Origin: Paraphotobacterium marinum
Lineage (GTDB): Bacteria; Pseudomonadota; Gammaproteobacteria; Enterobacterales; Vibrionaceae
NCBI RefSeq assembly: GCF_002216855.1
Contig: NZ_CP022356.1
Location: 806,001 to 870,000 of the forward strand
DNA length: 64,000 nt
Reading direction: 5' to 3'
Positions 2,942-33,453 of the stretch are shown here, piece by piece; positions within the stretch are counted from its first letter, which is position 1; each line of letters opens with the position of its first letter. Under the pieces are notes generated by a model. That model saw nothing but the letters and a program-made list of their open reading frames with translations. It made no database searches and was not told the origin of the DNA. The translations under genes were made by a program, and so were the position numbers.

Positions 2942-4624
2942 TTATAATAAATTTTTATTCAAAGTTTTCCTAAATTCAGAATATTTTATAAATGCATCAT
3001 TCATACATATTCCAATTGGAGTGATTGGAATTGTAGAGCTTAAAATCTCATCATATCCTTCTTTTCCTGTTGCAGTATAACTTGATGAAATAGACACATA
3101 TTCTCTATCATCAATGATTTTAGCCCATCCATTATTAGTTTTAATTTCAACGTTAAAAACATCTACCTGACCTGATTGATAAATTTTAACATCAAAACGA
3201 AGGCCTGCTGCATATGGATAGCTACCCCCGCTAGAGTTTTTTGCATAAAGAGCATTCGTAATTGAATCTTTTAAAAGTTTTTTTATTTTTTCTCCGCTTA
3301 ATCTATATTGTACCAATTCAATTTCAAATGGAAGGATTTTACCCGAAATATCGCCTTCACTTAAATTACCCTTTGGAATATGGGAACGAACCCCTCCAGC
3401 ATTATGAATTGCAAAGTCAGCATTTTTACCGAGTTTGTTTGCAGACCATAAAAAAGAATCTGCAACTAATGGAGCAACACAACTGGATTTGTTATCATTA
3501 GGTATTCTTATATGATTTAAGTCTTCCTCTACTTGAGCAATTATCTTTTTTTCTAACTTTGCTTTAATCTGTCTATAGTTGGTATTAAGGCAATGTTCTA
3601 TACGTTTATCTTTACTAGCAAAAATTACTCCATCTTGTCTTTTTAAATAAGAAAAAATCTTCTTCGACAAAGAGCTATCAATTAATTTTTTTTTGTCCTT
3701 ATCATTATAAAACTGCGTATCCAACATCAAATAGTTATTACCATTATAAGAACTCACTACTCCATCTGAGTTTAAAGTCAATTCTAGATAGCCATAACTT
3801 AGGGAATTAGAACCTGATTGAACAATCAAGGTATTGTTCATAACAAAAGGATATTCTTCAATTTTTTTCAAACCCACATTTGAAAAATTTCCAAGTAAAG
3901 TATGAGTATGCCCACCAATTATAATACTTATTCCATCAACTTTTTCAGCAACTTCTTGATCTTTCTTAAATCCTAAATGGCTTAATAATATAATATGACG
4001 TATTTTCAAATTATGAAGATGTTGAACTGTATTTTGAATAACAGGGATAGCTTTCAAAAATTCCGTATCATGATCTGGACTTGCTATTTCTGCCATATTA
4101 TCAATTGTTATACCGAATACAGCCAATTTAACATTATTAACATTATATATTTTATAATTAGCAATCTGCTGTTTTACATTGTAATCGATCAGATGATCTT
4201 TATTAATCTTAGAGCTTAATTTGCTCGGGGATTCCTTTGATAAATCCCAATTTCCTGCAAATATTGGAAAATTAATTTCATCAAGAAATTCATAAAACAA
4301 TTCGTTTCCAAGATCTAACTCGTGATTACCCAAGGCCATTCCATCAGGAGAAAGAATATTATACAAATCTGCATTTGCTTTCCCTTTAAAGTATGAAAAA
4401 TAAAGTGAGCCCTGAAAAGTATCTCCACCATCAAAAAAGAAAAATGGTAGATTATTAGCCAAAGAGTCCTTCTTTCTTCTCTTCTTTTCACTATTAATAT
4501 AAGAAAATCCTCCACAATCAACCCAAAATTCAATAAGTTCGTTCTGAATAGGAACAGTTAATTTTAATATTGATGGATCAAAATTTGAGTGTGTGTCATT
4601 AATGTGAAATATATTTAACTTCAT
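2942..4624 (-). CDS. 5'-nucleotidase / bifunctional metallophosphoesterase
   Basis: A 560-residue UshA/CpdB-type enzyme that would hydrolyse nucleotides or related phosphate esters with two metal ions. The N-terminal calcineurin-like domain shows the metal motifs in order: HINDTHS at residue 8, FDGGDTFQGS near 65, ALGNHELDLG near 95, IILLSHLGF near 210 and IIIGGHTHT near 235. The C-terminal 5'-nucleotidase domain has IHNAGGVRSHIP, the usual substrate-specificity region. Unlike periplasmic UshA it has no signal peptide: the catalytic domain starts at residue 2, so it is probably cytoplasmic. It follows a 72-codon gene by four bases and the two are probably co-transcribed. Substrate not determined. 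Confidence 0.88.
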   Translation of the reverse strand: MKLNIFHINDTHSNFDPSILKLTVPIQNELIEFWVDCGGFSYINSEKKRRKKDSLANNLPFFFFDGGDTFQGSLYFSYFKGKANADLYNILSPDGMALGNHELDLGNELFYEFLDEINFPIFAGNWDLSKESPSKLSSKINKDHLIDYNVKQQIANYKIYNVNNVKLAVFGITIDNMAEIASPDHDTEFLKAIPVIQNTVQHLHNLKIRHIILLSHLGFKKDQEVAEKVDGISIIIGGHTHTLLGNFSNVGLKKIEEYPFVMNNTLIVQSGSNSLSYGYLELTLNSDGVVSSYNGNNYLMLDTQFYNDKDKKKLIDSSLSKKIFSYLKRQDGVIFASKDKRIEHCLNTNYRQIKAKLEKKIIAQVEEDLNHIRIPNDNKSSCVAPLVADSFLWSANKLGKNADFAIHNAGGVRSHIPKGNLSEGDISGKILPFEIELVQYRLSGEKIKKLLKDSITNALYAKNSSGGSYPYAAGLRFDVKIYQSGQVDVFNVEIKTNNGWAKIIDDREYVSISSSYTATGKEGYDEILSSTIPITPIGICMNDAFIKYSEFRKTLNKNLL

Positions 4625-23788: not shown

Positions 23789-24271
23789 TCAAGCTTCCTT
23801 AATCTGCTTATTCATAACAATATTTGCATAAATTCCTGTTAAAATACTCCACAAAACAAATAAAACACAAAGGGTAATATAAAGATCTTTAGGAAAAATC
23901 ACAGCCCCTATTTTCATACCCGCGAAATAGGATAAGGTTCCCCCTACACCACCTCCAATTATCATAAGTATATAAGGGATTTTTGCGACAAAAGGCTGAA
24001 AAAAGTATAAAAAAACGCCAAAACCCAACCATAACACCACAAGCCACAGTGGTATAATTAATTGATTAAATTCGAAAAATCCCAGATAAGTTAGAGTTGA
24101 ATCAATGATGCAACCAAAGATAGCATAACTCAATGAATACAGAACACATTTATTATTACAAATCCATATTACACACAGCATCAAAATAGGTATATAAATA
24201 TAATTATTTTTACCAAAAACACACAAAATCCAAAAAAGATAAAATAATATATTATAAATTATCAAATTCAT
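23789..24271 (-). CDS. DUF2878 family membrane protein
   Basis: A 160-residue protein that is nearly all membrane: five helices with short loops. It belongs to the DUF2878 family by its short length, the CIIDSTLTYLGFFEF block and the WLVVLWLGFGVFLYF helix. Function unknown. In other gammaproteobacteria the same family sits between CFA synthase and chalcone-isomerase-like genes, as it does here, eleven bases after the CFA synthase stop. Confidence 0.82.
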   Translation of the reverse strand: MNLIIYNILFYLFWILCVFGKNNYIYIPILMLCVIWICNNKCVLYSLSYAIFGCIIDSTLTYLGFFEFNQLIIPLWLVVLWLGFGVFLYFFQPFVAKIPYILMIIGGGVGGTLSYFAGMKIGAVIFPKDLYITLCVLFVLWSILTGIYANIVMNKQIKEA

Positions 24272-24282
24272 GAAAGTTCCCT

Positions 24283-25515
24283 TTAAATGTTTTTCTCTAG
24301 GAGAATTTGAGCTACGCTAATAGACTTTTCTTCAAAACCTCCCTGACAATAACTAAAATAAAACTGGAATGTTTTGATGAACTTTTCATCATATCCCTGC
24401 ATAAGTATAGCATCTTTGTTTTGATTAAATTTTTCATGCCATATCTCTAGTGTTTTAGCATAGTCTTGTCCCAAATCCATATAATTTTTTAAAACAAGAT
24501 TAGAGTGATTGGTCGATTCTTTTAAAAAGGCACTTATGGATGGCAAATATCCTCCAGGAAATATATATTTTTGAATAAAATCAACTTGGTTAGAGTATGC
24601 TTTATGTCTTTGATCTTTCATAAGAATCGATTGAATTAAAATTAATCCATTATTATCTAACAATTCATTACATTTATTAAAAAACTTGGGGATATATTTT
24701 TTTCCAACAGCTTCGATCATTTCAACTGAAACAATCTTGTCAAAAGTTCCTTCTAGTTCTCTGTAATCTTTTAAAAGTAAATTAATCTTATTTTGAAGGC
24801 CTAATTTTTGAATTAAACTTTGTGTGTAATTATATTGCTCTTTCGATATAGTTGTTGTTGTAACTTGGCAGCCATATTCGGATGCCAGATAAATACTTAA
24901 TCCTCCCCAACCAGTTCCAATTTCTAATACATGATCGCAAGACGAAACATTTAAAGTTTTGGCGATAAGATCAAGTTTATTTACTTGTGCTTCATTCAGA
25001 CTAATCTTAAAATCTGAGCCAAAATAGCCGCTTGAATATTGCATTCTTTCATCTAAAAAAAGCTTATATAAATCGTTTCCAATATCATAATGACGAGAAA
25101 TATTTTTTTTGGCTTGTACAACTGAATTTTTATTAAAATAATGTTCTAATTTTGACTTTATCTTAAAAATAAAATTTAATTTACTATCTATAAGATCAAT
25201 AACATCTTCATTTTTGATCATTACTTTTATAAAATTAGTTAAATTTTTGGTATTCCAATGACCATTAATAAAGGATTCACCAGCACCAATTGAACCATGA
25301 AGGATAACTTGTCTGTAACATAATGGATTAAATACTTCAATTTCAACAACATTCTTTGATTCAGGATCTCCAAAAACATAAAAATCTTGGTTACTTTCAT
25401 TTAATTTAATAAAGCAGTTTTTCATATTTTTTAAATAATTAAAAACTAAATGTCGATAAAACTTGTTTTTTTTATTCAGCTTGTCAAACTGTTTTTCAAT
25501 CTCAACTTGATACAT
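24283..25515 (-). CDS. cfa: Cyclopropane-fatty-acyl-phospholipid synthase
   Basis: This enzyme adds a methylene from S-adenosylmethionine across double bonds of membrane phospholipid acyl chains. The 410-residue protein has the family's N-terminal lipid-binding part and, from about residue 135, the methyltransferase core: ISRHYDIGNDLYKLFLDE, the SAM-binding VLEIGTGWGGLSIYLA, YGCQVTTTTISKEQ, and VSVEMIEAVGKKYI. FIQKYIFPGG is the conserved substrate-site block. It is embedded in the photolyase operon rather than alone, which suggests membrane remodelling under light or oxidative stress. Confidence 0.92.
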   Translation of the reverse strand: MYQVEIEKQFDKLNKKNKFYRHLVFNYLKNMKNCFIKLNESNQDFYVFGDPESKNVVEIEVFNPLCYRQVILHGSIGAGESFINGHWNTKNLTNFIKVMIKNEDVIDLIDSKLNFIFKIKSKLEHYFNKNSVVQAKKNISRHYDIGNDLYKLFLDERMQYSSGYFGSDFKISLNEAQVNKLDLIAKTLNVSSCDHVLEIGTGWGGLSIYLASEYGCQVTTTTISKEQYNYTQSLIQKLGLQNKINLLLKDYRELEGTFDKIVSVEMIEAVGKKYIPKFFNKCNELLDNNGLILIQSILMKDQRHKAYSNQVDFIQKYIFPGGYLPSISAFLKESTNHSNLVLKNYMDLGQDYAKTLEIWHEKFNQNKDAILMQGYDEKFIKTFQFYFSYCQGGFEEKSISVAQILLEKNI

Positions 25516-25525
25516 TATTATCTCC

Positions 25526-26272
25526 TTAATTTATATCAGGATGTGAATAAAATTTATTTCCCTTCAACCAAACTTTAAATGCTTCCCAATAAATATTGAT
25601 TAAAATTCTGAATGTCATAGATGGTGTTTTCAATACACATTTTCGCATCAATTTTTTTGAAAAAGGAAAACCTTTTAAGATTAATGTTGCATCAAACACC
25701 TTATTTTCATGACATACGTCCATGTGTACTTTTAAATATTTAGAGGGATTATTAATTTTCCAATGATAGATCTGGTCCATTGGATTAAAGGGGGATACAT
25801 GAAATGACTTTTCATGGCTCCATTTATATAACTTTTGTTCTTCTAAAATAACTTTTGAATAATAAAACCTTTCATTCCAAGGCGTATTAGAGACTTCTAC
25901 TAAGACTCCTTGAAGTATATTTTTCTGATAAATATAATAAATATTGATCGGGCTAAAAAAAATTTCACAATATCTAAATTGGCACAGCATAAAAACTTGA
26001 GCATCTAAATAATTAGTTTTTTCTAAATCATTAAATTTATCTAAAACAGATTTTTTTATATTTTGGCTATTTTGCAAATAATCTTTCTTTTGAAATTTAA
26101 TCGGAGTGTAAAAATATTTGCCAAAAATTTTGAGTAAACTTTGAATTTCCTCAAATTCATCAAGATTTATATAAGGCATAAATATTGGATAATTAAAAAA
26201 ATGCTTTTTGGGTGAAAATCTTCTGTGTCTTACATTCCCAATATAGATCTTACTTTCCATATTTTGTACCAT
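25526..26272 (-). CDS. DUF1365 family protein
   Basis: A 248-residue protein with the DUF1365 start motif IYIGNVRHRRFSP and PYINLDEF, then FHVSPFNPMDQIYHWKINNP in the middle. The family function is not established; it nearly always lies between an FAD-dependent amine-oxidase-like protein and a cyclopropane synthase. The gene overlaps the preceding FAD oxidoreductase gene by 23 bases (or by 11 if translation begins at the second Met, MESKIYIG). Confidence 0.86.
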   Translation of the reverse strand: MVQNMESKIYIGNVRHRRFSPKKHFFNYPIFMPYINLDEFEEIQSLLKIFGKYFYTPIKFQKKDYLQNSQNIKKSVLDKFNDLEKTNYLDAQVFMLCQFRYCEIFFSPINIYYIYQKNILQGVLVEVSNTPWNERFYYSKVILEEQKLYKWSHEKSFHVSPFNPMDQIYHWKINNPSKYLKVHMDVCHENKVFDATLILKGFPFSKKLMRKCVLKTPSMTFRILINIYWEAFKVWLKGNKFYSHPDIN

Positions 26273-27521
26273 TCAATAAACTTACAATATCTAATGCACT
26301 TCTAATACCATCCTCATGAAAACCGTTATACCAATATGCACCACAAAAATAACAGTTGTTTTTTCCATTAATTTTAGAACGTAAGCCTTGAGCTTTAACA
26401 GTACTCTCATTAAAAATTGGATGTGAGTATACAAAAGAATTTATTATTTTCGACTTATCGATTGATTTCGTATCATTTAAAGTCACACAAAAGGTCATTT
26501 TATCTTCAAGTCTCTGAAGAATGTTCATATTATATGTTACTGAAGGTAATTGATCTGTTAAATGATCTTTATTAAACCTATAATTCCAGGAAGCCCATGC
26601 CTGTTTGGTTTTTGGTAGCATATTAATATCATAATGAAGAACAACTTCATTCTCTTTATATTTGATTTGTCCTAATATGTTTTTTTCTTCAGGAGTAGGG
26701 TTTTTAATTAATTTTAAGGTTTCGTCACTATGCGAGGCAAAAATGACTTTATCATAATTTAAAATCTCATTACTAATCTCGACAGCACAATGATTTGAAA
26801 AGCGCTCAACAGCTATGACAGGCTCATTTAATCTAACTTCAAAATTACAATTTTCAAATATTTTTTCAATGTAATATTTTGAACCATTTGGAATAACCTT
26901 CCATTGTGGGCGGTTATTAATATCTAATAGTCCATGATTATTAAAAAATTTTACAAAAAATTTCACTGGAAAATTCTTTATATCATCCAATGATGATGAC
27001 CATATTGCCGAACCCATCGGTAACAAATAATTTTGACAAAAATATTCACTAAACTTATATTTTTTTAGTAGCTCTGAAAGCAAATAATCATCTGAAAAAT
27101 TTTCTAACATCTCATTATTCACATATTTTTTAGCGATTTTATTAAATCTTATAATTTCATATAAAAACTTGTAGAACTTCAAATTAAAAAAATTTTTCTT
27201 TTGAGCGAATAAACTTAAAAATGAATGGCCATTATACTCTAAATCATATCTAGGATTTGAAACACTAAAACTCATTTCTGTGTCTAATCCTTCAATATTT
27301 AAATCTTTCAAGAAATTATTAAAATTTGGATAGGTTCTGTCATTAAAAACAATAAATCCTGTATCAATTCTGTAGGATTTGTTATCTTTAGTAAATTCAT
27401 GAGTTGCAGTATGTCCTCCAATATAATTATTCTTTTCAAATAAAGTCACTGAATGTTCTTTACTTAAATAATACGCAGATGCTAATCCTGATATTCCACT
27501 TCCAATTATGGCTATTTTCAT
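26250..27521 (-). CDS. FAD-dependent oxidoreductase (amine oxidase-like, COG2907)
   Basis: A 423-residue flavoprotein. The N-terminus has the dinucleotide fold IAIIGSGISGLASAYYLSKE, followed by GGHTATHEF and RIDTGFIVFNDRTYPNF, and C-terminal FCGAYWYNGFHEDGIRSALD with the FAD-binding tail. This matches the COG2907 flavoproteins linked to CFA synthase genes. It is thought to modify unsaturated or cyclopropane fatty acids, but the reaction is not known for this protein. Eight bases separate it from the dehydrogenase gene. Confidence 0.85.
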   Translation of the reverse strand: MKIAIIGSGISGLASAYYLSKEHSVTLFEKNNYIGGHTATHEFTKDNKSYRIDTGFIVFNDRTYPNFNNFLKDLNIEGLDTEMSFSVSNPRYDLEYNGHSFLSLFAQKKNFFNLKFYKFLYEIIRFNKIAKKYVNNEMLENFSDDYLLSELLKKYKFSEYFCQNYLLPMGSAIWSSSLDDIKNFPVKFFVKFFNNHGLLDINNRPQWKVIPNGSKYYIEKIFENCNFEVRLNEPVIAVERFSNHCAVEISNEILNYDKVIFASHSDETLKLIKNPTPEEKNILGQIKYKENEVVLHYDINMLPKTKQAWASWNYRFNKDHLTDQLPSVTYNMNILQRLEDKMTFCVTLNDTKSIDKSKIINSFVYSHPIFNESTVKAQGLRSKINGKNNCYFCGAYWYNGFHEDGIRSALDIVSLLNGTKYGK

Positions 27522-27529
27522 ATTAATCC

Positions 27530-28264
27530 CTAATTTTTTGATAATTTTTTTGTAAACTTAATCTGTAAATCTATTGGTAACATACGGATTAACTTTAAAA
27601 TAAACATAAACTTCCAAGGAAAAGAAATTTCTTGAGGTGAACTTTTTAATTTTCTTATAATAAATTTAGATGCATCATCAACATCAACTAAAAAAGGCAT
27701 ATTGAAATCATTTTTATCAGTTAATTCTGTTTTTACAAAACCTGGGTTAATAACTGTTAATTTTGAATTTAATTTTTCAGTAGAAAGTGAGTTAATAAAA
27801 TAAGTCAACGCAGCTTTTGAAGAACCATATGCTTCTGAACGAGGGAAAGGAATGAATGTGGCACTTGAACTTACAACTGCAATGTGTGTATTGAGAAGTG
27901 GATCTTTCTTTTGAAAAAACTCTATAATCCAAACTGGTGCAAAGAAATTAACTTTGTGCACTCGCTCAATTAAATCACTATCAATTTGTCCATCGTTTAT
28001 ATATTCACAAACTCCAGCATTCAAAATAATAAGATCTGGTATAAACTCAAGAGTTGAAAGTTTATCATGTATTTCTTCCTTATTAGAAATATTAAAAGAA
28101 AGTATAGTGGCTTTAGGGTCAAGCTTTTGGAGTTGCTGTAATTTTTCTTCATTCCTCCCACAGGCAATGACATGATAGCCTTCGTCAATATAATCCTGTG
28201 CTAATTGAAAGCCAATTCCTGAAGTTGCTCCAGTGATCATCACCGTTTTTCTTTTTGCTTCCAT
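27530..28264 (-). CDS. Short-chain dehydrogenase/reductase
   Basis: A 244-residue classical SDR. The cofactor motif TGATSGIG is at residue 11, NAG appears as LNAGVCEY near 85, the catalytic Ser is in VVSSSATF and the YxxxK motif is AYGSSKAAL near 155. An NAD(P)-dependent alcohol or ketone conversion is expected; the substrate is unknown. The C-terminal helical tail, MLPIDLQIKFTKKL, is amphipathic and may touch the membrane. Sixteen bases separate it from the SnoaL-like gene. Confidence 0.88.
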   Translation of the reverse strand: MEAKRKTVMITGATSGIGFQLAQDYIDEGYHVIACGRNEEKLQQLQKLDPKATILSFNISNKEEIHDKLSTLEFIPDLIILNAGVCEYINDGQIDSDLIERVHKVNFFAPVWIIEFFQKKDPLLNTHIAVVSSSATFIPFPRSEAYGSSKAALTYFINSLSTEKLNSKLTVINPGFVKTELTDKNDFNMPFLVDVDDASKFIIRKLKSSPQEISFPWKFMFILKLIRMLPIDLQIKFTKKLSKN

Positions 28265-28280
28265 TACTTACTCCCTAAAC

Positions 28281-28721
28281 TCATTTGTTGAGTGATTTTT
28301 TAATTTTTCGGATAAACCATGAAAGAATCGGTATCCCCTCATAAATCATACTTCCCAAATCAATGTAATCTCTGTGATAATAAATTTTATCATCACTCAT
28401 TTTTAGTATGCTGGCTCCCTCAACGGTTCGAGAGTCTCCCTTAAATAATTTGGGGTGCTTAAAAGACATATCCCACTCAATAATGCTGATATCATGTTTG
28501 ATAATAATATTTTTAAAACTAAAATGACATTCATGGATATTGGAATACATATTTAAGAAATAATTTTTTAGATTATCAATTCCTTTTATTTCATGGGCTG
28601 GATCTACGAAAATAATATTATCTGAGTAAATTGAAGATAACTCATCGATGTTTTTAACAGTTAATTGGTTGTAGAAAGTTTCTAAATTATCAATAATATT
28701 TTTTACTTTTTGCTCTTCCAT
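28281..28721 (-). CDS. SnoaL/NTF2-like protein
   Basis: A 146-residue single-domain protein of the NTF2/SnoaL fold: LETFYNQLTVKNIDELSSIY in the first helices, then DNIIFVDPAHEIKGIDNLKN, and strands ending KIYYHRDYIDLGSMIYEG. Such proteins bind or isomerise small hydrophobic molecules. The exact role in this operon is not known. It is three bases from the photolyase stop and shares the operon order seen in other bacteria with photolyase clusters. Confidence 0.82.
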   Translation of the reverse strand: MEEQKVKNIIDNLETFYNQLTVKNIDELSSIYSDNIIFVDPAHEIKGIDNLKNYFLNMYSNIHECHFSFKNIIIKHDISIIEWDMSFKHPKLFKGDSRTVEGASILKMSDDKIYYHRDYIDLGSMIYEGIPILSWFIRKIKKSLNK

Positions 28722-28724
28722 AAA

Positions 28725-30158
28725 TTAAATTCCATTTTCATATTTTTCTTTTGCAAACTTAAAAGTCTCGATAGCTTGTTTTCGAGAAGATGACAAGCTT
28801 ACCATGGGTTCATAGTAAATATTTTCAGAGTTTAGTTGGATATAATCCCATGGTTCATGAATATATTTTCTAGGAATATTTTTTAGTTCAGGAACATATT
28901 TTTTGATGTATTCTCCATTAGGATCAAAGTTCTTACTTTGAGTAATAGGATTAAACACTCTAAAGTAAGGCTGCGAATCCGTTCCTGTAGAAGCTGACCA
29001 TTGCCATCCACCATTATTTGAAGCAAATGTTCCATCCACTAAATGCTGCATGAACCAATCTTGTCCTTTTTTCCAATGAATTAATAAGTTTTTGGTAAGA
29101 AAACTTGCAACAATCATTCTAACTCTATTATGCATCCAACCTTCTTCAATTAATTGTCTCATTCCAGCATCTACAATTGGAAAACCAGTCATCCCTTTTT
29201 TCCATTTATTAAAATCATCTTCAGATTCATTCCATGGAATAAATTTAGTATATTGAAGAAAGGGTTTATTTTGTCCTAAATCTGGAAATGCTTGTAGTAA
29301 ATGGATATAAAATTCTCTCCAGATAATTTCATTTACCCAACTATTATCGAGAGCTATTTTTGAGTCTATGCAGATTTTTATTAAAGTCTGAGGAGAGACA
29401 ATGCCTACGGCAAGATATGGGGACATCTTACTTGTTCCATTTATAGCTGGAATATCTCGTGTAAACTCGTAGTCGGCTAAATGGTTAAGGACAAAAGAAT
29501 TGAATATCTCTAAGATTTCTTTCTCTTTATAAAAATATTTGTTTTCATATTCAACATCTCTAAAGAAATTATTATATGCATTCTGTGCGCTTTCAAAAAT
29601 AATTTTATCGGTAAGGGTATTATAATGATTAGTTTCTATATTAAATTTACTTCTATCTAGTTGGTGAATCCATTTTTTTTTAAATGGAGTAAAAACCTTG
29701 TACATTTTTTTCTCACCATTTAATACAGTTCCAGGCTCTAATAAAGTTTGATTATGCATTTGTATATATTCAAAATTATTCCGAGATAAAAGAAAATGAA
29801 CAGCGTGATCTCTTTCAGACTCATCATATTCATACTCATAGTTGCTCAAAAGTTTCTGAATAGAAAATTGATTCATAAACTGAATCAGAAAGTCAGGTAT
29901 TTCGGAAAAGCTATTAATTTCAAAAATAAAAAATGGAATATTTTTTTCTTTAAATAAAAGATATAAATATTTGAGTCTATCAAATATCAGAGCGCGTTGA
30001 ATATTCGACTTTTTGTGTAATTTCCATTCATGAATGGCATGAAAATAGATAACAATAGTTTCTTCCGATGATTCATAGTCTCTAGAAAATAAAATATTAT
30101 CCATCATCCTTAAATCACTTCTTAACCAAATTAATCTTCTATTATTTTTACTCATCAT
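28725..30158 (-). CDS. phrB: Deoxyribodipyrimidine photolyase
   Basis: A class I CPD photolyase of 477 residues that uses reduced FAD and blue light to split pyrimidine dimers. The N-terminal antenna domain begins RRLIWLRSDLRMMDN. The C-terminal FAD domain shows LLQAFPDLG, WKKGMTGFPIVDAGMRQLIE, GWMHNRVRMIVASFLTKNLL and NNGGWQWSASTGTDSQPYFR, the residues that surround FAD and the lesion, and ends with the usual FNPITQSKNFDPNGEYI. It overlaps the MerR gene by four bases (ATGA), so they are translationally coupled. The most certain enzyme of this operon. Confidence 0.95.
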   Translation of the reverse strand: MMSKNNRRLIWLRSDLRMMDNILFSRDYESSEETIVIYFHAIHEWKLHKKSNIQRALIFDRLKYLYLLFKEKNIPFFIFEINSFSEIPDFLIQFMNQFSIQKLLSNYEYEYDESERDHAVHFLLSRNNFEYIQMHNQTLLEPGTVLNGEKKMYKVFTPFKKKWIHQLDRSKFNIETNHYNTLTDKIIFESAQNAYNNFFRDVEYENKYFYKEKEILEIFNSFVLNHLADYEFTRDIPAINGTSKMSPYLAVGIVSPQTLIKICIDSKIALDNSWVNEIIWREFYIHLLQAFPDLGQNKPFLQYTKFIPWNESEDDFNKWKKGMTGFPIVDAGMRQLIEEGWMHNRVRMIVASFLTKNLLIHWKKGQDWFMQHLVDGTFASNNGGWQWSASTGTDSQPYFRVFNPITQSKNFDPNGEYIKKYVPELKNIPRKYIHEPWDYIQLNSENIYYEPMVSLSSSRKQAIETFKFAKEKYENGI

Positions 30159-30943
30159 TCATTTCCCCCCATCATCATGTCTTCTTTTTTTAATAAGATT
30201 CCGGGGTTATCTAAATTACTGATGAAGTTTTTTTGTTTTTGATTAAGCGTAACGTTATGAGAGCAATATACTTTGGTAATTTTATTTGCATTTAAGTACG
30301 CCTTTAACGTTAAGTTATTGGCATTCGCACATACCAAAAAATCAATGTAGTAACCTTGATTGGCTAAAGTAAGAGCATCATGATAAATGTGTAGGTAATC
30401 ATAATTAAAACTAATAATTAAAACACTTTCTGTATTTTGTTTATTTAAACTGGAAATAATAGATTTAAAAATATCAACAGAAATATTTACAAATAAATCA
30501 TATAAGAATTCTTGATTAGGTATAATGCCAGATTTTAATTTATGTTGTATTTTTTTAAAAATTTGATTATAAAATATATGATAAGGATAGTTTTTCAGCA
30601 CCTCATTTAAATAGGACTGAATCTTTCTTCTATTCATACTCAATAATAAGTCAATTATCGTAGATACCTCGGTGAAGTCTTCATTTGAGTTACTCACATC
30701 ATGGTTCAAAGTCTCATCAGATAATAAAAGAGGCTTTACCTTTCTGATGGGTACACCTTTATCTAACCAGTTCAAGATTTGATGAATTATATTTATGTCT
30801 GATTGATCATAAACTCTATGACCCTTGGGATTTCTTTTGGGATTAATTAATCCATATCTTCTTTGCCAAGCTCGCAGTGTTACAGAGTTCACATTTGTAA
30901 TTTTTGATACTTCCGTAATAGTATAAAATTTATTGCATTCCAT
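30155..30943 (-). CDS. MerR family regulator, LitR/CarH-like (light response)
   Basis: A 262-residue regulator. The N-terminal MerR helix-turn-helix is clear: YTITEVSKITNVNSVTLRAW, QRRYGLINPKRNPKGHRVYD. The C-terminal half has the length and helix pattern of the cobalamin-binding part of CarH/LitR, but the B12-binding Glu-x-His-x-x-Gly motif is not visible; the nearest His-rich stretch is YDYLHIYHDALTLANQ. This fits the class II LitR proteins that have lost B12 binding and instead receive light signals through a partner. It lies between the DUF523-DUF1722 gene (14-base overlap) and phrB. I infer it represses this operon, with operators at 31901-31971. Confidence 0.8.
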   Translation of the reverse strand: MECNKFYTITEVSKITNVNSVTLRAWQRRYGLINPKRNPKGHRVYDQSDINIIHQILNWLDKGVPIRKVKPLLLSDETLNHDVSNSNEDFTEVSTIIDLLLSMNRRKIQSYLNEVLKNYPYHIFYNQIFKKIQHKLKSGIIPNQEFLYDLFVNISVDIFKSIISSLNKQNTESVLIISFNYDYLHIYHDALTLANQGYYIDFLVCANANNLTLKAYLNANKITKVYCSHNVTLNQKQKNFISNLDNPGILLKKEDMMMGGNE

Positions 30944-31883
30944 ATCTGATATTCAACTCTTCTGGGTATGGCGATAAAAAAGACTGACATTCAATAAACT
31001 TGTCATAATATTTATTTTGATAATGTTTTAATAAAGTCATCGGTGATTCAATAGGTAAGATTGAATTCCTATATTTTAAAATAATTTCGGAAAGTTCCTT
31101 TTTTTCATTTTTATCTAAAATTTGTTTATAGTGTCCTTGAATATGCATTAGTACATTAGTATTAGTTTTTCTATTGGCATGTTTTCTAAGAGTATCCATA
31201 AATTTTTGTCTATAAATATGGTAAAATTCTTCATTGTTATATTCGCAAATATGGGCAACTAAATGGCCTAATTCTTTGTAACCCTCTTGGCAGTGAGAGA
31301 GCAGCAAATATTTATATCGCGTATGAAAATTGATGTAATCTTTTCTTTTAGACTGAAGATTTATATTTTTATAGTAATCATTTAACGCAAATACCCTAAC
31401 AATAAAGTTTCGGCGTAATACCAAATCACACAATCGACCATCTTCTTCAACTGGTAACCAGGGCATTTTTTGAATTAACTTACCTGTGAAAAGACCCGGT
31501 GTTCCTCCTGGAATAGTATTTCCATTTTCTCTGTAAAGCTTTACTCTTTCCATACCACATGTAGGTGATTTTGCGCAGACAATATATCCACACATTTGAT
31601 TCTGTTCATTAAGTTGATTTATTTTTTTTTCAGAGAAATCATTCATTTGATCAGTAAAATCTTTCTCATGTGTTTTAGTATCTACTAAGAGGTTTGTTTG
31701 ATTTTTAAATAATAGACGAACTGTGGGTCTTGGAACACCCATATTAATTGCTACTTCAGGGCAAATAGGCTGGAAAGAAAAATAAGGAGTTAAAACTCTA
31801 TCAACAAATCTACTTAATTTATGTCCGCCATCAAATCGAACTTTTTGACCAAGAACACATGAGCTTATACCAACTTTAATCAT
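30930..31883 (-). CDS. DUF523-DUF1722 fusion protein
   Basis: A 317-residue two-domain protein. The N-terminal DUF523 part has three conserved cysteines in ISSCVLGQKVRFDGGHKLS, QPICPEVAIN and AKSPTCGMERVKLY. In the studied member TudS they hold a 4Fe-4S cluster and remove sulfur from thiouracil. The C-terminal DUF1722 part (about residue 190 on) includes LLLSHCQEGYKELGHLVAHI and ILKYRNSILPIESPMTLLKH. DUF1722 is known from YbgA, often linked with photolyase. I start at 31883 (MIKVGISSCVLG), just after GAGGAAAAG. It is the first gene of the operon. Function in this setting is unproven. Confidence 0.85.
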   Translation of the reverse strand: MIKVGISSCVLGQKVRFDGGHKLSRFVDRVLTPYFSFQPICPEVAINMGVPRPTVRLLFKNQTNLLVDTKTHEKDFTDQMNDFSEKKINQLNEQNQMCGYIVCAKSPTCGMERVKLYRENGNTIPGGTPGLFTGKLIQKMPWLPVEEDGRLCDLVLRRNFIVRVFALNDYYKNINLQSKRKDYINFHTRYKYLLLSHCQEGYKELGHLVAHICEYNNEEFYHIYRQKFMDTLRKHANRKTNTNVLMHIQGHYKQILDKNEKKELSEIILKYRNSILPIESPMTLLKHYQNKYYDKFIECQSFLSPYPEELNIRYGMQ

Positions 31884-31900
31884 CTTTTCCTCACAAAAGG

Positions 31901-31971
31901 TGTACAAAAAAATACCTTACTAAATAATTGTACAACCTAAATACTCGCTTGTACAATTATTTTTTTGTATA
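31901..31971 (-). promoter_or_regulatory. Operon promoter with a cluster of TGTACA palindromes (candidate LitR operators)
   Basis: TGTACA occurs at 31901-31906, 31929-31934 and 31950-31955, and TGTATA at 31966-31971. The second and third are full TTGTACAA palindromes with centres 21 bases apart. On the minus strand they form the promoter itself: TTGTAC at 31951-31956, an 18-base spacer, and TACAAT at 31927-31932. LitR/CarH-type MerR repressors recognise paired TGTACA-like words, so this is a strong candidate for control by the MerR protein of the same operon. Confidence 0.65.
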
Positions 31972-32061
31972 ACTTGATTTGTTCTTGGAGTTGAGAAGCT
32001 GCTCTCGCTCTGTTATCCTGCTATGAAAATTAAAATTTAATTATATATGTTCTTAATTTTT

Positions 32062-32283
32062 CTAAGTTTCAAAATCAATTCGAATTCCATTCACTGAAAA
32101 AATTCTTGTATGATTTCTACCCACTTTTTCATCTAAGACATTTTTATTTACATTTTTTTCTAACTTCAAAATAGTTTCATGAACAAGTTTCTTTTGGCTC
32201 TGTAAGCTATGTTCTAATTCATTAATATGTTGATTTAACTGCTCCAAAATACTTAATTGCAAATAATCACCTTTGTTATGCAT
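32062..32283 (-). CDS. Hypothetical coiled-coil protein (73 residues)
   Basis: A short protein I do not recognise. Residues 8-52 are a likely coiled coil: LQLSILEQLNQHINELEHSL then QSQKKLVHETILKLEKN. The C-terminus RIFSVNGIRIDFET looks like two short strands. It is on the same strand as the light operon but 180 bases upstream of the operon promoter. The ribosome binding site is GGGAGTAAT. No partner suggests its job. Confidence 0.6.
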   Translation of the reverse strand: MHNKGDYLQLSILEQLNQHINELEHSLQSQKKLVHETILKLEKNVNKNVLDEKVGRNHTRIFSVNGIRIDFET

Positions 32284-32547
32284 AATATTACTCCCAAAAT
32301 ATAAATACTAAAAATGAATTAATAAAAACCGTTTTCTTTTTGAGCAATAATATTACAAATAAATTAACTTTCAAAACATGACGCTGTTCAAAAATTAAGC
32401 ATATTAGTTAATATGATGAATAACCAACCTTTATAAAATCAATCAAATTGCTACATGATTTCATAAAAACAAATATTTTAATATAAGATAAAATTAATTT
32501 TTATCATTTAGTTTTGCCTAACAATTTTCAAATTAGTACTATCAGAA

Positions 32548-33453
32548 CTAGTAAATATTTTGATAAAGTCTTATTTTTTCTTTCATAAAGTTTAGAAAAG
32601 CTTTGTGGGTTGGGAGATGTGAATTACCCTTATCATAAAAAAAATACTGATCCATTGTTCCAAAATCAAACGAAGGCAGTAATCTGATTAAACTGCCATC
32701 ATTAAGATATTTATAAACTTTATTATCTGGTAAGATACTTACACCAATATTTTTTAAAATCAAACTAATTATTGCATTTTGCGTGTTTAATAATAAATTT
32801 GATTGCCGTAATTCAAGCTTTAATCCAGTTAAAGAATCAAAGGATTCTGGGGTGGGTGTCAAATAATGATAGAGAAAACGAAATTTTTTTATATCTTTTA
32901 GCGATTTTGGTCTTCCAATAAATTTTTCATGTTCTGGTGTACAGACAAGCAAAAGCTTTGAACTTAAAATTTTTTGAGCAATTAAATTTGGTGATAATCC
33001 TTTAAGATCAATTCTAAAGCCTATTAAAAAATCAATCTTATTAGCTATAAAATTAGGTACTTCTTCTCTAATTTCAATTTTAAGATTAATTTCAGGATAC
33101 ATTGTAATAAATTCATTTAAATATTTGAAAAGTAATTGGTGACATATTATTTCAGATACAACGATTTTAAGTTCTCCTTTTGGATTTTCATTAACATTCA
33201 AATATAATTTTTCTGTATTTTTTAGTAATTCTTGTACCTTTTTTGTATGTTCGTAAAACGCAACCCCCCTCTCCGTTAAGTGAACAATGCGTGTTGTCCT
33301 ATTAAATAACTTATAGCCAAGCTTATTTTCTAACTTTTTTATTTGTGCACTTACAGCTGGTGGTGAAATTTCGTAATATTCAGCTGTTTTAACAAAACTA
33401 CTTAATTCCACTATTTTATTAAAAGTTAACATATATTTTATCAACGAAACCAT
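32548..33453 (-). CDS. LysR family transcriptional regulator
   Basis: A 301-residue LysR-type regulator with MLTFNKIVELSSFVKTAEYY and AVSAQIKKLENKLGYKLFNR in the N-terminal helix-turn-helix, followed by the ligand-binding fold. An excellent ribosome binding site (GAGGAG) precedes the ATG at 33453. It is divergent from an MFS transporter, with a 24-bp palindrome between them, so it probably controls that transporter in response to its substrate. The effector is unknown. Confidence 0.9.
   Translation of the reverse strand: MVSLIKYMLTFNKIVELSSFVKTAEYYEISPPAVSAQIKKLENKLGYKLFNRTTRIVHLTERGVAFYEHTKKVQELLKNTEKLYLNVNENPKGELKIVVSEIICHQLLFKYLNEFITMYPEINLKIEIREEVPNFIANKIDFLIGFRIDLKGLSPNLIAQKILSSKLLLVCTPEHEKFIGRPKSLKDIKKFRFLYHYLTPTPESFDSLTGLKLELRQSNLLLNTQNAIISLILKNIGVSILPDNKVYKYLNDGSLIRLLPSFDFGTMDQYFFYDKGNSHLPTHKAFLNFMKEKIRLYQNIY

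What the first reader, a model, noticed from the sequence alone, without database searches (positions are those of the whole stretch)
31901..31971. TGTACA palindrome cluster forms the promoter of the photolyase operon
Three TGTACA and one TGTATA occur in 71 bases. Two are full TTGTACAA palindromes, centres 21 bp apart (two helical turns), and they lie exactly over the TTGTAC -35 and the TACAAT -10. The third lies just past the predicted transcription start. LitR/CarH-type MerR repressors bind paired TGTACA-like words, and the operon encodes such a regulator.
Basis: partly seen in the sequence, partly recalled or inferred. Interest (0 to 1): 0.75.

Follow-up and report, generated by a model that had tools for sequence, protein, structure and literature searches.

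The report
Repressor operator before a photolyase operon
A cluster of four short palindromic words in front of a light-damage repair operon is very probably where the operon's own MerR-type regulator binds; in the related genomes examined the words almost always accompany that regulator gene and are missing where it is not nearby, and this species has moved one of them onto the promoter's -10 box.

Summary
In detail: three TGTACA and one TGTATA in 71 bp, far beyond chance. The window lies on Paraphotobacterium marinum chromosome II (sizes match). The words precede an operon RudS-MerR-photolyase-SnoaL-SDR-FAD oxidoreductase-DUF1365-CFA synthase-DUF2878. In Vibrionaceae relatives the same words mostly form two pairs, each 17-18 bp start to start. 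Of 89 relatives, 75 of 76 with MerR nearby have a pair upstream of RudS and 0 of 13 without do, after two tandem-RudS loci were resolved. So MerR is the likely cognate factor and the site an autoregulatory operator like the footprinted class II LitR sites of Pseudomonas. In this window the spacing is 16, 21 and 28: A, B and D hold their places, while C sits about one helical turn upstream, over the -10 TACAAT. MerR has a CarH-like predicted fold but no B12 motif. Paired words are not enriched genome-wide, and searches for LOV (PAS_9), BLUF and ChrR partners found none; the light sensor is unknown. Known kind, new spacing variant.

The parts
31966..31971 (-). Word A (TATACA on - strand), outer word of the upstream pair
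   Evidence: corresponds by position to word A of relatives
31950..31955 (-). Word B (TGTACA within TTGTACAA), overlaps the -35; A-B start to start 16 bp (17 or 18 in 63 of 64 relatives with four words)
31951..31956 (-). Putative -35 TTGTAC (the promoter scan prefers TGTACA 31955-31950)
   Evidence: consensus only
31929..31934 (-). Word C (TGTACA within TTGTACAA); 28 bp before word D instead of 17-18, i.e. about one helical turn upstream of its place in relatives
31927..31932 (-). Putative -10 TACAAT, overlapping word C
   Evidence: consensus only
31901..31906 (-). Word D (TGTACA), downstream of the predicted start, before the RudS ATG
30930..31883 (-). RudS-type gene (2-thiouracil desulfurase domain + DUF1722), first gene; ATG at 31883 (the longer frame from a TTG at 31907 would start at word D)
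30155..30943 (-). MerR-type regulator: HTH + CarH-like helical bundle and Rossmann domain (predicted), no DxHxxG B12 motif
28725..30158 (-). DNA photolyase
28281..28721 (-). SnoaL-like protein
27530..28264 (-). Short-chain dehydrogenase
26250..27521 (-). FAD-dependent amine oxidase-like protein
25526..26272 (-). DUF1365 protein
24283..25515 (-). Cyclopropane-fatty-acid synthase-like methyltransferase
23789..24271 (-). DUF2878 protein, last gene of the run as listed (genes below 23789 not examined)

Best explanation
The four words are the operator at which the MerR protein of the same operon binds and represses it (autoregulation). In the dark the protein bridges word pairs lying over the -35 (A-B) and across the -10 and early transcribed region (C-D), shutting out RNA polymerase; illumination or photo-oxidative stress releases it and switches on desulfidase, photolyase and the lipid-modifying genes. 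In P. marinum word C has moved about one helical turn upstream so that it overlaps the -10. SHOWN: the words; their chance improbability; their association with a nearby MerR gene across Vibrionaceae; the CarH-like fold in a predicted model; the missing B12 motif. INFERRED: binding, repression, light as the signal, the transcription start, and the functional meaning of the shifted word.
For: 89 relatives (29 loci, 60 fetched): a pair at 17/18 bp stands upstream of RudS in 73 of 74 loci with MerR in the first stretch and in 2 of 15 without. Those 2 (L085, L135) have tandem RudS genes, with MerR about 4 kb downstream behind its own word quartet. For the other 13, stretches of 15-17 kb around RudS show no MerR in 13 of 13, the photolyase next to RudS in 12 of 13, and no word pair at 16-19 bp anywhere in 12 of 13. 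Resolved counts: 75 of 76 and 0 of 13 (Fisher p 1e-14 on these counts, sequences not independent). Named set (80 loci, overlapping in species): 47 of 49 with MerR have a pair, 29 of 31 without have none upstream of RudS; the 2 misses with MerR keep one pair with a single mismatch. Joint absence spans several lineages (Aliivibrio, Photobacterium lipolyticum and profundum, Vibrio comitans/inusitatus/ezurae, Enterobacterales). HTH residues VTLRAWQRRY and GHR are invariant in 44 sequences. The word matches footprinted PmlR2 sites, one over the -35 and one past the start (PMC9758184 passages), and GTACA in BluR/MlrA sites (PMC3509220 passages). In V. cholerae operons with photolyase VCA0057 are reported blue-light induced, VCA0056-0058 also in a ChrR mutant (PMC5241685 passages).
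Against: No binding or expression data for this species. None of the window's three spacings (16, 21, 28) is the N12 (18) of the published consensus; in the relatives 16 occurs once (P. aquimaris), 28 once (as a B-C interval), 21 never. One of 13 loci without MerR (L266) does have an 18-bp word pair, 2.8 kb from RudS. The V. cholerae regulator of the corresponding operon was footprinted at tcpA on a motif that its authors say has no obvious homology to the TGTACA box (PMC9662190). The light-transducing partners searched for were not found in this genome, so release by light is unexplained. No enriched regulon.
Confidence: 0.85

Rival explanations
1. MerR binds these words but works mainly as an activator, as E. 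coli MlrA does at csgD, raising operon expression in the light.
For: The best NCBIfam profile over most of the protein is MlrA (5.2e-34, residues 6-238), and E. coli MlrA is called an activator (PMC3509220 passages). V. cholerae MlrA is reported to activate tcpA (PMC9662190).
Against: Words lie over the -35, the -10 and downstream of the predicted start; BluR and PmlR2, whose sites overlap the -35, are repressors. In relatives the second pair lies after the predicted -10.
Confidence: 0.12
2. The P. marinum operator is decaying: the family-wide operator is real, but here the altered spacing reflects relaxed selection in the smallest complete Vibrionaceae genome and the operon is no longer properly repressed.
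For: All three spacings differ from the family rule; the MerR C-terminal part averages 18% identity to 60 relatives against 27% among them; the genome is small and AT-rich (PMC5649133).
Against: All four words are exact, two of them as perfect 8-bp palindromes; the MerR frame is intact with every invariant HTH residue and a confident model; drift would not be expected to produce a new exact TTGTACAA.
Confidence: 0.12
3. The words belong to another palindrome-binding regulator or are by-products of promoter sequence.
For: TTGTAC and TACAAT themselves resemble -35 and -10 hexamers.
Against: Loci without a nearby MerR keep RudS, and most keep the photolyase beside it (12 of 13; 25 of 31), but lack the words upstream; words A and D are not promoter hexamers; chance is negligible.
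Confidence: 0.03

Closest known systems
Class II LitR operators of Pseudomonas (PplR1 of P. putida, PmlR2 of P. mendocina)
   Same: Two pairs of TGTACA-like words, the first over the -35; gene region with photolyase, SDR, FAD oxidoreductase and a fatty-acid-modifying gene; MerR not needing B12 (PMC9758184 passages and discussion).
   Different: Published pair spacing is N12 (18 start to start); Vibrionaceae use 17-18 and P. marinum 16 and 28. No short LOV protein was found in this genome with PAS_9. In P. mendocina the second site lies past the start; here word C overlaps the -10.
BluR/MlrA of E. coli
   Same: MlrA is the best NCBIfam profile for the protein; GTACA half-sites, BluR site over -35 and spacer (PMC3509220 passages).
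   Different: Far below the MlrA equivalog cut-off (117.6 of 417 bits); no BLUF match in this genome; different target operon.
CarH/LitR class I (Thermus, Myxococcus)
   Same: Predicted fold: HTH, helical bundle, Rossmann domain; best PDB matches are TtCarH (Foldseek 2.4e-10, VIA Z 14.1).
   Different: No [DE]xHxxG B12 motif in the window protein or in any of 74 relatives; NCBIfam CarH match covers residues 5-70, the HTH, only.
V. cholerae MerR/MlrA VCA0056 operon
   Same: Regulator followed by photolyase; reported blue-light induction (PMC5241685 passages).
   Different: Reported binding motif at tcpA does not resemble TGTACA (PMC9662190); its own operon promoter and its sequence were not examined here, so the correspondence rests on gene order as printed.

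Membership tests
Class II LitR/CarH | N-terminal MerR HTH | tested here: met
   Pfam MerR_1 1.4e-17; invariant HTH columns
Class II LitR/CarH | CarH-like helical bundle plus Rossmann C-terminal part | tested here: met
   AF2 model pLDDT 88.2; Foldseek top hits CarH, VIA Z 14.1 over residues 87-262. Pfam finds no B12-binding domain
Class II LitR/CarH | No B12-binding motif | tested here: met
   [DE].H..G absent from the window protein and 74 relatives
Class II LitR/CarH | Operator T(G/A)TACA-N12-TGTA(C/T)A in the target promoter | tested here: not met
   Window pairs are N10, N15 and N22, none N12; relatives use N11 or N12. The words match, the spacing does not
Class II LitR/CarH | Short LOV photoreceptor partner | tested here: inconclusive
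   PAS_9 found only one match, below the cut-off, in a frame read as an NtrB-like kinase (name recalled); a LOV domain outside PAS_9's reach cannot be excluded
Class II LitR/CarH | Light-released repression of its own operon | not testable with these tools
   needs expression data
CarH/LitR class I (B12 photoreceptor) | DxHxxG-type cobalamin motif | tested here: not met
   CarH profile matches HTH residues 5-70 only
MlrA (NCBIfam NF011617 equivalog) | Score above the curated cut-off | tested here: not met
   117.6 bits against 417
BluR-BluF system | BLUF antagonist in the genome | tested here: not met
   PF04940 0 matches in own genome; control E. coli rings

The most novel reading that the evidence does not exclude
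Vibrionaceae MerR regulators of this operon use a dedicated four-word, essentially single-operon switch, and P. marinum has re-phased it so that one half-site overlaps the -10 box itself. Since searches found no B12 motif in the repressor and no LOV, BLUF or ChrR partner in this genome, the repressor would be released by a not yet described light or oxidant signal, possibly through one of the photolyase/cryptochrome proteins.
Probability: 0.25. Interest if true: 0.6.

Novelty: new variant of a known kind. Interest (0 to 1): 0.45.

Why it matters
It gives a concrete, family-wide candidate for the native operator of the Vibrionaceae MerR/MlrA-like photolyase-operon regulator. The listings showed no paper that I recognised as describing it; only the top 5-20 papers of each search were listed, the library lacks most subscription journals, and RegPrecise and the P. 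putida paper of 2020 (not held) could not be read. It also bears on the puzzle that the V. cholerae protein was footprinted on a dissimilar motif. The rule that the words follow the MerR gene is directly testable. P. marinum offers a natural spacing variant for asking how a LitR-like oligomer reads half-sites one turn apart, and a genome in which the known light inputs were not found.

Tried and rejected
Rejected: the 21-bp centre-to-centre pair as the binding unit (not seen in any relative). A wider regulon in this genome: TRTACAN{10,28}TGTAYA gave 16 places against 16 for the reversed control; TTGTAYAN{8,12}TTGTAYA gave 3 forward and 2 reverse against 0 and 0, only one of these five in this promoter, the others not examined for nearby genes beyond L145 and L147. 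A pair before a purT-like gene with the same 28-bp interval (G000:C2:267612), about 1.5 kb before a cluster with photolyase-type genes, looked tempting, but it is one of three other N22 pairs, one of which lies inside a frame. In 61 family genomes TTGTACAN{9,11}TTGTACA gave 82 matches (34 forward, 48 reverse) in 35 genomes against 3 for the reversed-pattern control, and 0 in the window's own genome; many are this promoter. Of the off-operon places read, those in L150, L157, L160, L168 and L178 lie inside reading frames and that in L152 between frames; the rest were not read. Loss of a C-terminal 'IH' tail in the window protein as a cause of the new spacing: rejected, 18 of 74 relatives lack it too. 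A LOV-like motif hit in L076 is in an NtrC-like frame and taken as chance. The first scan for close relatives of MerR in named genomes found nothing. Assigning the -10 in relatives by a simple score is only a heuristic: spacer 17 best in 39 of 62 loci with four words and MerR.

Limits of counting: the 89 loci are from the best-scoring RudS matches listed (287 of 296 genomes matched, own genome included; the list was cut); RudS of the lower-scoring group was not examined. 'No MerR' means none within the stretches read (15-17 kb for the 13, 3 kb of flank); genome-wide absence was seen for one of the 13, G045. The two sets of relatives overlap in species. One search counted pairs at 16-20 bp; the 47 loci all show 17 or 18. 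The full quartet is found in 64 of 89 loci, 62 of the 74 with MerR in the first stretch; the others with MerR have fewer exact words. Quartet intervals were selected by a spacing window, so the unbiased figure is the spacing spectrum of the same call. The counts in the Fisher test were typed in. Of 27 MerR loci from the order-level search (L003-L029; 3 of them from this family), pairs anywhere in the locus stood at 17 in 3, 18 in 4, 19 in 12, and none in 8. VIA ranks only chains proposed by Foldseek.

Full report
WHAT IS THERE. On the operon's (-) strand they read A (TATACA, 31971-31966), B (31955-31950), C (31934-31929), D (31906-31901), then the RudS ATG at 31883. Start-to-start intervals are 16, 21 and 28. 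TGTACA is not enriched in the window as a whole (13 against 14.2 expected), but 0 of 2000 Markov windows of 64 kb contained three TGTACA with starts within 55 b.

WHERE IT IS. The window is C2:806001-870000 of a 2,593,992-b genome, and C2 is 1,161,949 b; both numbers are those published for Paraphotobacterium marinum NSCS20N07D and its chromosome II (PMC5649133, passages). No other genome of its genus is held. The family is Vibrionaceae (named relatives).

THE OPERON. Pfam gives RudS-type (TudS + DUF1722), MerR, photolyase, SnoaL-like, SDR, FAD amine oxidase-like, DUF1365, CFA-type methyltransferase and DUF2878, all on the - strand with small gaps or overlaps. RudS enzymes remove 4-thiouridine from tRNA and often sit in light-responsive operons (PMC11417400, passages). 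That the genes are one transcript is inferred.

THE COMPARATIVE TEST. RudS was found in 287 of 296 family genomes searched, the own genome included. I read upstream of RudS in 89 relatives: 29 loci saved and 60 fetched, all from the best-scoring part of the list. A word pair 17 or 18 bp apart is present in 73 of 74 loci with MerR in the stretch and in 2 of 15 without. The two (L085, L135) have tandem RudS genes, and MerR with the photolyase follows about 4 kb on, behind a second word quartet, giving 75 of 76 and 0 of 13. For these 13 I then read 15-17 kb around RudS: no MerR in 13 of 13, the photolyase beside RudS in 12 of 13, no word pair at 16-19 bp in 12 of 13; the exception, L266, has one pair 2.8 kb from RudS and no photolyase or MerR. 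The exception with MerR, L140, has a single exact word. In 80 loci of named genomes the counts are 47 of 49 with MerR and 2 of 31 without. The 2 misses with MerR, V. thalassae and V. hangzhouensis, carry TGTACA-N11-TGTATC, one mismatch from a pair. The sets overlap in species and the sequences share ancestry, but joint absence is seen in several lineages. This is the strongest evidence that MerR is the factor that needs these words.

SPACING. In the spectrum of all word intervals upstream of the 89 loci, 17 (100) and 18 (38) dominate, then 29-33 and 46-51; 16, 21 and 28 are absent. In the named set 16 occurs once, 28 once as a B-C interval, 21 never. In the 64 loci with four words in order, A-B is 17 (57), 18 (6) or 15 (1) and A-D is 61-69; the window's A-D is 65. 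So A, B and D keep their places and C lies 28 rather than 17-18 bp before D, a shift of 10-11 bp, about one turn of the helix. It now overlaps TACAAT, the best -10 match. In relatives the best-scoring -10 candidate lies between B and C, most often 17 bp from the -35 (39 of 62, a heuristic). MerR loci from other families of the order show 19-bp pairs in 12 of 24, so spacing drifts between lineages, but 28 is a new step.

THE REGULATOR. The HTH is conserved (56% mean identity to 60 relatives over the first 80 residues, 63% among them); the C-terminal part is not (18% against 27%). A model from 44 aligned sequences has mean pLDDT 88.2; the best PDB matches are CarH with DNA and the CarH cobalamin domain at Z 14.1, rmsd 3.1, 166 residues. 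The B12 motif is absent from all 75 proteins tested. NCBIfam ranks MlrA first and CarH second, the latter over the HTH only, both under cut-off. This agrees with class II LitR, described as not using B12 (PMC9758184, discussion read).

HOW IT MOST LIKELY WORKS. By analogy with PmlR2, which protects a region from about -54 to +37 with two word pairs and represses in vitro, and with BluR, which covers -35 and spacer, MerR bound here would block polymerase. Blue-light induction of the corresponding genes is reported in V. cholerae, where a ChrR/MerR double mutant is called blind (PMC5241685, passages). What reaches MerR in P. marinum is open: PAS_9 has one weak match in an NtrB-like kinase, BLUF none, the ChrR-type cupin family none, although it occurs in 20 of 24 other family genomes searched. 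The genome has three FAD-domain photolyase-family proteins.

AGAINST. No wet data. The V. cholerae regulator was footprinted at tcpA on a motif said to lack homology with the E. coli MlrA box (PMC9662190, passages and discussion); either it has two binding modes or one of the two sites is not its main target. I did not examine the V. cholerae promoter itself. No regulon beyond this operon could be shown here, except that some Photobacterium genomes have two such operators.

VERDICT. Observation confirmed; interpretation right about promoter and cognate MerR, wrong about which spacing is the unit and too close to CarH. A spacing variant of a known operator type, interest 0.45.

Noticed in passing
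G000:C2:267612-267645 (L080:5612-5645): TGTACA-N22-TGTATA about 100 b before a purT-like gene (name recalled from its sequence), with the same 28-bp interval as window C-D; a cluster with two photolyase-type genes starts 1.5 kb downstream.
   Followed up: partly
window 32062-32283 (-): A 73-aa open frame lies just upstream of the operator on the same strand; no terminator-like site was found in 31850-32550.
   Followed up: no
window 31929-31957 (+): Because the words are palindromic, a mirror-image promoter-like match exists on the + strand; no + strand frame of 30 aa or more was listed in 31884-32547.
   Followed up: no
L262:270-341 and 4130-4200; L263:338-409 and 4199-4269: Photobacterium genomes with tandem RudS genes carry two word quartets, one before RudS and one before MerR-photolyase, so the regulon there has two operators.
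   Followed up: yes
L004, L009-L011, L013, L014, L016, L017, L019, L021-L023: MerR relatives in other families of the order have word pairs 19 bp apart instead of 17-18, a lineage-specific spacing.
   Followed up: partly
G000 whole genome: The ChrR-type cupin family PF12973, matched in 20 of 24 other Vibrionaceae searched, has no match in P. marinum.
   Followed up: partly
L264, L265, L267-L276 and L182, L184, L193, L203, L244: RudS-photolyase operons without a nearby MerR gene (Aliivibrio, some Photobacterium, others) have no word pair; how they are regulated is open.
   Followed up: partly
L266:7893: In a Vibrio genome whose RudS has neither MerR nor photolyase nearby, a TGTACA-type pair (18 bp) lies 2.8 kb from RudS; its gene was not identified.
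   Followed up: no
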